This document shows positions 14,930 to 15,595 of a stretch of DNA of 64,000 bases, piece by piece. This DNA is from an archaeon. GTDB lineage: Archaea > Nanobdellota > Nanobdellia > Woesearchaeales > GW2011-AR9. The stretch's first letter is position 1. Each line of letters starts with the position of its first letter. The notes under the pieces are model-generated. The model ran no database searches and had not been told where the DNA came from. It saw only the letters and a program-made list of their open reading frames with translations. Location of the stretch: assembly GCA_018670085.1 (NCBI GenBank), contig JABHRS010000029.1, forward strand, positions 1 through 64,000, written 5' to 3'. The translations under genes were made by a program, and so were the position numbers.

Positions 14930-15595
14930 ATGAATATAACAGAAAAATTATCTGGATTAGCATTTGAAAATGGATATGATGTACTTCAAGAAGGAGGTTT
15001 GGCTATTGTTGGTATGAGTCCAGGTAATAGCTATTTCAAGAAAGGAACCATAAATGAATTGCTAAAGTTTTGCGCAAGTAAGTTTTCACAAGTGAGAATA
15101 ATGGTTGCTGATAAACCGATGGAGCATAGTTACAAGGCTTTAGGGTATTCTTGTTTTAAAGCTAAAAAAAAAGCTAGATTAAGTGGAAATACCTTAAAAA
15201 ATCATTCTTTGAGTACTATTAGTGGGTTAGTTGGTGATGTTAAACTGATTGAATGGGAAAAAGAGATAGATCAACATGCATCTCACAATAAAGAATTGCA
15301 GAAAATCATATCATTATATGAGGGGAGTAATAAATTTAGACAAGAAGTAAGAGAAACAACGAGAAAGGTTCTAAAAAATAAGCTGAGGGAAGCTATTGCA
15401 ATTGAAGATGCAATTGATGAAGGTGTTTTTTATTTATTAAAGGAATTAGCATTTTTATCAGCTAGCCCTGAAATATTTGGAATACAAAAAGTTACATATG
15501 TGTATCATGATCACTTTGAAGTGTTTGAACATTTTGTTAGTGGAATTTATAATGGTCACAAGAGAGGAGATTTAGGATTTGTAATAATATCATAG
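14930..15595 (+). CDS. Cyclodipeptide synthase (tRNA-dependent CDPS), NYH-type
   Basis: GMSPGNSYF (catalytic Ser and Asn), FYLLKELAFL (Tyr, Glu), YVYHDHFEVF (Tyr-His), terminal GFVIIS. Y-x3-E and a Y-to-Y separation of 24 match AlbC Y178/E182/Y202. ORF track uses TTG 14921; ATG at 14930 more likely. Confidence 0.87.
   Translation: MNITEKLSGLAFENGYDVLQEGGLAIVGMSPGNSYFKKGTINELLKFCASKFSQVRIMVADKPMEHSYKALGYSCFKAKKKARLSGNTLKNHSLSTISGLVGDVKLIEWEKEIDQHASHNKELQKIISLYEGSNKFRQEVRETTRKVLKNKLREAIAIEDAIDEGVFYLLKELAFLSASPEIFGIQKVTYVYHDHFEVFEHFVSGIYNGHKRGDLGFVIIS

What the first reader, a model, noticed from the sequence alone, without database searches (positions are those of the whole stretch)
14930..15595. 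Archaeal cyclodipeptide synthase with complete NYH-type catalytic set
Seen: GMSPGNSYF, FYLLKE and VYH. In ORF-track numbering the residues are S33, N36, Y171, E175, Y195, H196. The Y171-E175 (4) and Y171-Y195 (24) spacings equal those of AlbC Y178/E182/Y202. Established: CDPSs hijack aminoacyl-tRNAs to make cyclodipeptides and are mainly bacterial. Inference: this archaeon makes a diketopiperazine, possibly for signalling or interaction. No obvious cyclodipeptide oxidase, P450 or methyltransferase tailoring gene is adjacent.
Basis: partly seen in the sequence, partly recalled or inferred. Interest (0 to 1): 0.87.

Follow-up and report, generated by a model that had tools for sequence, protein, structure and literature searches.

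The report
Archaeal cyclodipeptide synthase with its regulator
A tiny, probably host-dependent archaeon carries a genuine enzyme gene of a kind known almost only from bacteria, one that joins two tRNA-borne amino acids into a small ring-shaped peptide, and the gene travels through its archaeal order next to a dedicated two-part control protein, which suggests a small regulated chemical-signal or metabolite system.

Summary
Window 14930-15595 (+) encodes a 221-aa protein that matches the cyclodipeptide synthase family (Pfam PF16715, E 1.7e-31). An AlphaFold2 model (pLDDT 96.9) matches NYH-subfamily CDPS crystal structures first. A tree places it in an archaeal (DPANN) clade next to a bacterial, mostly CPR, clade, apart from the classical NYH enzymes.

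New: it is not a lone enzyme. In seven genomes of six families it faces, across about 100 bp, a tandem Lrp/AsnC-type protein (here 13812-14828, -), 59-84% identical between genomes, more than ribosomal protein uL2 (44-67%), while the CDPSs are 29-61% identical. The shared promoter block is conserved: a model trained without the window finds it once there (40.7 bits; next 1.8). In three genomes the same protein and promoter face another gene, so the CDPS looks like cargo of a regulator-promoter cassette.

Not shown: activity, product (published pocket codes do not fit; the database label "cyclo-Tyr-Tyr synthase" is unsupported), ligand, or signalling role. Only one archaeal CDPS, of XYP type, was found in the literature.

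The parts
14930..15595 (+). Cyclodipeptide synthase, 221 aa (alternative TTG start at 14921)
   Evidence: PF16715 1.7e-31; TIGR04539 130.8 bits; AF2 pLDDT 96.9 and Foldseek best match YvmC 3.1e-13
15017..15028 (+). Codons of nucleophile S30 to N33 (AlbC S37, N40) in GMSPGNSYF
   Evidence: invariant in 40 relatives
15152..15220 (+). Helix alpha4 (residues 75-97), 6 Lys/Arg and no Asp/Glu: the helix reported to bind tRNA in NYH CDPSs
   Evidence: DSSP on model, charge count; role from PMC13062777
15431..15445 (+). Codons of Y168 to E172 (AlbC Y178, E182)
   Evidence: invariant in 40 relatives
15503..15508 (+). Codons of Y192 and H193 (AlbC Y202, H203): NYH signature
   Evidence: invariant in 40 relatives
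14829..14929 (.). Divergent promoter region; conserved 64-bp block 14841-14904. Inferred TATA boxes: about 14852-14859 (regulator, reads left) and 14892-14900 (CDPS, reads right)
   Evidence: Leave-one-out position model scores 40.7 bits here, next best in the window 1.8; composite pattern found once per genome at this place in 6 genomes; alignment
13812..14828 (-). Tandem Lrp/AsnC-type regulator (HTH-RAM-HTH-RAM), probably leaderless start ATG 14828 (longest ATG ORF begins 14849)
   Evidence: Pfam HTH_24, HTH_AsnC-type, AsnC_trans_reg; PDB profile hits PH1519, PH0061, LrpA to the two halves; AF2 pLDDT 95.9; conserved divergent neighbour of CDPS

Best explanation
Window 13812-15595 is a two-gene cassette of a woesearchaeal (DPANN) archaeon. 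The + strand gene is a catalytically complete NYH-subfamily cyclodipeptide synthase. By homology it binds an aminoacyl-tRNA through its basic alpha4 helix, moves the amino acid onto S30, extends it with a second aminoacyl-tRNA, and releases a cyclodipeptide by Y168/E172/Y192-assisted cyclisation. The divergent - strand gene is a tandem Lrp/AsnC-type protein that most likely binds the conserved block between the two TATA boxes and controls both genes in response to an amino acid or to the cyclodipeptide. Shown by computation: family, subfamily, complete catalytic set, conserved pairing, conserved promoter block. Inferred: catalysis, DNA binding, ligand, product identity, cellular role.
For: CDPS: Pfam, NCBIfam, 40 of 40 relatives hit only PF16715 and keep S, N, Y, E, Y, H, AF2 plus Foldseek with the NYH structures YvmC, ShCDPS, BtCDPS, AlbC and Rv2275 ranked above every XYP structure, the same five heading the profile search. 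Pair: divergent tandem Lrp gene next to CDPS in 7 genomes of 6 families; 10 of 362 genomes in the order have it at more than 618 bits, the next matches being paralogues in the same genomes (392-313 bits) and then proteins at about 155 bits and below; 10 of 21 metagenomic CDPS contigs of at least 3 kb have the exact contig length of a contig that carries the regulator. Promoter. Regulator fold with two GxYD RAM motifs and two HTHs.
Against: No biochemistry was found for any member of this clade. In three genomes the regulator and promoter face other genes (G154, G264: small membrane protein; G300: lipoprotein-like), so the regulator is not strictly a CDPS regulator. Several archaeal NYH CDPSs (G012, G001, G522, L007, L008) have no such neighbour. 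The promoter block was shown to be conserved, not to be bound. The contig-length matches are circumstantial.
Confidence: 0.82

Rival explanations
1. The CDPS is real but the tandem Lrp-like protein is an enzyme, like the siroheme decarboxylase NirDL, which has the same fused HTH-RAM-HTH-RAM plan; it would tailor the product rather than regulate the gene.
For: NirDL is the top full-length Foldseek match (6.3e-15, TM 0.60).
Against: NirDL shows 13% identity and is absent from the sequence-profile hits, which are DNA-binding regulators PH1519, PH0061 and LrpA. NCBIfam LysM regulator 95.9 bits against 28.8 for AhbB. NirDL tops the fold list probably because it is fused in the same way. The promoter block is conserved even when the partner gene differs.
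Confidence: 0.08
2. The CDPS-fold protein no longer makes cyclodipeptides and does something else with aminoacyl-tRNA, such as a linear dipeptide, transfer to another acceptor, or tRNA sensing.
For: Fast divergence (29-61% between loci whose regulators are 59-84%), no tailoring genes, and one pair member (G327) with Cys for the nucleophile Ser and Tyr for His.
Against: All catalytic residues are invariant in 40 relatives, including Y192; fold as in active NYH enzymes.
Confidence: 0.1
3. The gene is bacterial, present through misassembly or binning error.
For: CDPSs are mainly bacterial; the sequence appears to be a metagenome-assembled genome (37 contigs).
Against: It lies inside an 82.8-kb contig beside a gene family found only in this archaeal order; same-family Woesearchaeota UBA10204 has the same pair in the same arrangement; the tree groups it with archaeal sequences (96/82) apart from the bacterial clade.
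Confidence: 0.02

Closest known systems
NYH-subfamily cyclodipeptide synthases (YvmC, BtCDPS, ShCDPS, AlbC, Rv2275)
   Same: Fold, catalytic Ser/Tyr/Glu/Tyr, N40-H203 pair, basic alpha4 helix
   Different: About 20% identity over the fold alignment; separate deep branch; archaeal host; P1 pocket IGMAWFLY fits no published code; no tailoring gene, instead a divergent tandem Lrp gene
Archaeal CDPS AQS34941 noted by Gondry et al. 2018 (PMC5816076)
   Same: CDPS from a metagenomic archaeon, uncharacterised
   Different: That one is described as XYP subfamily; this one is NYH
CDPS fused to an SBP_bac_3 domain in CPR, Obscuribacterales and some proteobacterial MAGs (L009-L020, L022, L023)
   Same: Sister clade in the tree, same SPGNSYF and YH motifs
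   Different: Bacterial, about 470 aa; the four long ones scanned carry a C-terminal solute-binding-protein-like domain; no Lrp partner seen
B. subtilis yvmC-cypX with MarR-type repressor YvmB (PMC4992311, PMC7731078)
   Same: NYH CDPS under an adjacent dedicated transcription factor
   Different: MarR-type factor, P450 CypX and MFS exporter YvmA present; here a tandem Lrp/AsnC-type gene and no tailoring enzyme
Archaeal Lrp/AsnC (FFRP) regulators such as LysM, LrpA and PH1519
   Same: HTH plus RAM domains; sequence and fold matches
   Different: Two complete units fused in one chain; the family is nearly confined to this order

Membership tests
Cyclodipeptide synthase (PF16715) | Match to family model above curated cut-off | tested here: met
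   110 bits against 27; TIGR04539 130.8 against 45
Cyclodipeptide synthase (PF16715) | Class I aaRS-like Rossmann fold of solved CDPSs | tested here: met
   AF2 pLDDT 96.9; YvmC E 3.1e-13, TM 0.84-0.86; TyrRS hits further down the list
Cyclodipeptide synthase (PF16715) | Catalytic S37, Y178, E182, Y202 (AlbC numbering) | tested here: met
   S30, Y168, E172, Y192, invariant in 40 relatives
Cyclodipeptide synthase (PF16715) | Makes cyclodipeptides from two aminoacyl-tRNAs | not testable with these tools
   Needs expression and LC-MS
NYH subfamily | N40 and H203 (against X40 and P203 in XYP) | tested here: met
   N33 and H193, invariant in 40 relatives; definition from PMC13062777
NYH subfamily | Positively charged helix alpha4 | tested here: met
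   Residues 75-97: 6 K/R, 0 D/E; family mean net charge +4.5, range -1 to +9
NYH subfamily | Groups with NYH enzymes in a tree | tested here: met
   With YvmC, BtCDPS, Rv2275 and Streptomyces, apart from YP-motif relatives L050, L052, L054 (100/94); midpoint root, few references
Cyclo(Tyr-Tyr) synthase (database label of relatives) | Published cYY pocket P1 VG[IV]TMLFN and NCBIfam model NF052540 | tested here: not met
   P1 is IGMAWFLY (table); NF052540 55.6 bits against cut-off 300
CDPS tailoring cluster (albonoursin, pulcherrimin, drimentine type) | Adjacent oxidase, P450, methyltransferase or prenyltransferase | tested here: not met
   Neighbours are Lrp-type, EamA pair, GT2, DegT, FemAB-like; no tailoring gene conserved across loci
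Lrp/AsnC regulators | HTH plus RAM domain with GxYD motif | tested here: met
   Two of each; AsnC_trans_reg itself only at the cut-off (25.0 bits)
Lrp/AsnC regulators | Sequence-specific DNA binding and ligand response | not testable with these tools
   Conserved promoter block is indirect support
Siroheme decarboxylase NirDL/AhbAB | Match to family model above cut-off | tested here: not met
   AhbA 28.5 against 140 and AhbB 28.8 against 125 bits

The most novel reading that the evidence does not exclude
The pair is a self-contained, horizontally spread small-molecule circuit of DPANN archaea: the CDPS makes a cyclodipeptide that is itself the ligand of the tandem Lrp-type protein, giving an autoregulated, autoinducer-like or host-directed signal.
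Probability: 0.17. Interest if true: 0.88.

Novelty: new variant of a known kind. Interest (0 to 1): 0.63.

Why it matters
In the papers searched only one archaeal CDPS is mentioned, of the other (XYP) subfamily, and none was found characterised. Here a whole archaeal NYH clade comes with a conserved dedicated regulator and a defined promoter, which makes the question of whether archaea make cyclodipeptides, and what for, directly testable with two genes and 100 bp of DNA. DPANN archaea have small genomes and usually depend on partner cells (general knowledge), so spending aminoacyl-tRNA on a secondary metabolite is unexpected. The clade also adds pocket motifs outside the published specificity code, so a new product is plausible.

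Tried and rejected
CDPS and regulator relatives in viral contigs: none, so no sign of viral carriage. Search for other sites of the composite promoter element: one per genome, so no wider regulon with that element. Product prediction from P1/P2 pockets: P1 IGMAWFLY fits none of the published groups; W at AlbC 119 recurs in Pro/Leu/mixed groups, so a non-Tyr, aliphatic or Pro residue in P1 is only a guess. Database name cyclo-Tyr-Tyr synthase: rejected. Export by the adjacent EamA pair (15590-16341): not adopted, since it is convergent, ArnE/ArnF-like and not conserved beside other CDPSs. Link to the surrounding glycan cluster: not adopted, since no glycan gene is conserved beside the other CDPSs. 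Synteny with genus mates: the flanking GT2 gene has no close counterpart (33% best), so the insertion site could not be dated. Contig-length match of P0025 (1,380 bp) was discarded because both genes do not fit. sigma-70 scan: at chance level, archaeal promoters not covered.

Full report
1. The observation. The longest reading starts at TTG 14921, but the ATG at 14930 matches the start of the family alignment. Pfam PF16715 matches 16-220 at E 1.7e-31, NCBIfam TIGR04539 at 130.8 bits against a cut-off of 45. It is the only CDPS in a 1.48-Mb genome of 94% estimated completeness.

2. Is it an intact enzyme? Forty sequences (the window's and 39 homologues from metagenomes and genomes) all hit PF16715 alone and keep all six residues without exception. 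The AlphaFold2 model has mean pLDDT 96.9. Foldseek against the PDB puts the NYH structures YvmC, ShCDPS, BtCDPS, AlbC and Rv2275 first (3.1e-13 to 5e-10) and the XYP structures after them (1.7e-8 and worse), with TyrRS further down. Helix alpha4 carries six Lys/Arg and no acid, as reported for NYH enzymes, which are said to bind tRNA there (PMC13062777). These are sequence and model results; no activity is shown.

3. What organism and what spread? A genome of the same family (G024) is Candidatus Woesearchaeota UBA10204. In the same order 14 of 362 genomes have a CDPS, 4 of 51 in the family; in a sample of 382 genomes drawn from the phylum, the order included, 19 have one. The distribution is sporadic. 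The same-genus genome G001 has a CDPS only 32% identical, and G002 has none. The tree joins 46 mostly archaeal rows (96/82; the named ones are Woesearchaeota, Nanoarchaeota, Aenigmatarchaeota), sister to a bacterial clade from CPR, Obscuribacterales and some proteobacteria; together (99/97) they stand apart from the classical NYH enzymes. The tree is midpoint-rooted, its bootstrap had not settled, and six branches are long, so deep joins are tentative; L048 and L046 fall outside the archaeal clade and may be misplaced.

4. The partner. Comparing neighbourhoods gave one conserved neighbour: a divergent protein of about 340 aa, at 13812-14849 (-) in the window, beside CDPS in G000, G024, G340, G087, G080, G334 and G327, six families in all. 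It consists of two HTH-RAM units of the Lrp/AsnC kind fused in one chain. In a search of 362 genomes ten had it above 618 bits; the next matches were paralogues in the same genomes (392 to 313 bits) and then proteins at about 155 bits and below. Seven of the ten face a CDPS. The other three face a different gene: homologous small membrane proteins in G154 and G264 and a lipoprotein-like gene in G300.

5. The promoter. Between the two genes lie about 100 bp with two TATA-like boxes facing away from each other. The block reads roughly TATATAAATaTT.C.CATTtTTCTTAAAa...AAT..gTTTATTATAtTGT in ten genomes. A position model trained on the nine other genomes scores 40.7 bits at 14841 in the window; the next best place on either strand scores 1.8. 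A looser composite pattern occurs once per genome, always at this place, in six of thirteen genomes. The conservation persists when the partner is not a CDPS, so it belongs to the regulator side at least as much as to the CDPS.

6. Evolution. Between genomes the regulators are 59-84% identical, uL2 is 44-67%, and for every pair the regulator exceeds uL2; the CDPSs are 29-61%. The simplest reading is horizontal spread of a regulator-promoter cassette with fast-changing or exchangeable cargo; extreme constraint on the regulator is the alternative. G327 shows how far the cargo can drift: its CDPS has Cys at the nucleophile position and Tyr for His beside a regulator 75% identical to the window's.

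7. Mechanism. From CDPS enzymology (AlbC; PMC5816076) the enzyme should load one aminoacyl group on S30, transfer a second, and cyclise. The regulator probably controls both genes from the shared region. Which ligand it senses is unknown: amino acids are usual for this family, and the cyclodipeptide would be a new kind of ligand. The product cannot be predicted: pocket P1, mapped through BtCDPS residues (PMC8084100), reads IGMAWFLY, unlike any published group. The label 'cyclo(L-tyrosyl-L-tyrosyl) synthase' on relatives is unsupported (55.6 bits against 300).

8. Rivals. The tandem Lrp protein also resembles siroheme decarboxylase NirDL, its top full-length fold match, but sequence evidence favours a DNA-binding regulator. 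Loss of cyclodipeptide synthesis is possible but unlikely given invariant residues. Contamination is made very unlikely by context and by relatives.

9. Novelty. One archaeal CDPS, of the XYP kind, is mentioned in a 2018 survey (PMC5816076); a 2015 review knew none (PMC4609331). Searches of open-access papers for CDPS with DPANN or Woesearchaeota returned nothing on point. Subscription papers were not covered, and automatic annotation already calls some relatives CDPS. So this is a known enzyme family in a little-known domain, with a new conserved regulatory partner.

Noticed in passing
L009-L020, L022, L023 (for example L010:5974-7386): Bacterial sister-clade CDPSs of about 470 aa carry a C-terminal SBP_bac_3-type domain (five of five long ones scanned) with no obvious transmembrane segment between, implying a cytosolic amino-acid or peptide-binding domain on a CDPS. 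No paper found on it.
   Followed up: partly
L051:9311-10036 (G327): CDPS beside the same regulator has Cys in place of the catalytic Ser (PLCPGNGYF) and YY in place of YH: a possible thio-nucleophile CDPS or an inactive one.
   Followed up: no
L050, L052, L054: The same archaeal order and class also contain divergent CDPSs with a YP motif (XYP-like), in genomes other than those with the cassette.
   Followed up: no
L089:6962-7324 and L090:7947-8339: Homologous small membrane proteins of 120-130 aa without Pfam match take the place of CDPS opposite the same regulator and promoter.
   Followed up: partly
window 826-28048: Large surface-glycan gene cluster (DegT aminotransferases, epimerases, PMT-like and GT genes, two FemAB-like proteins at 17899-18984 and 19153-20262) surrounds the cassette; FemAB relatives in bacteria also use aminoacyl-tRNA.
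   Followed up: partly
window 10675-12822: A 715-aa fusion of a UDP-GlcNAc 2-epimerase and an NAD-dependent epimerase/dehydratase.
   Followed up: no
window 7819-8805: 328-aa ORF on the + strand without any Pfam match, next to the glycan cluster.
   Followed up: no
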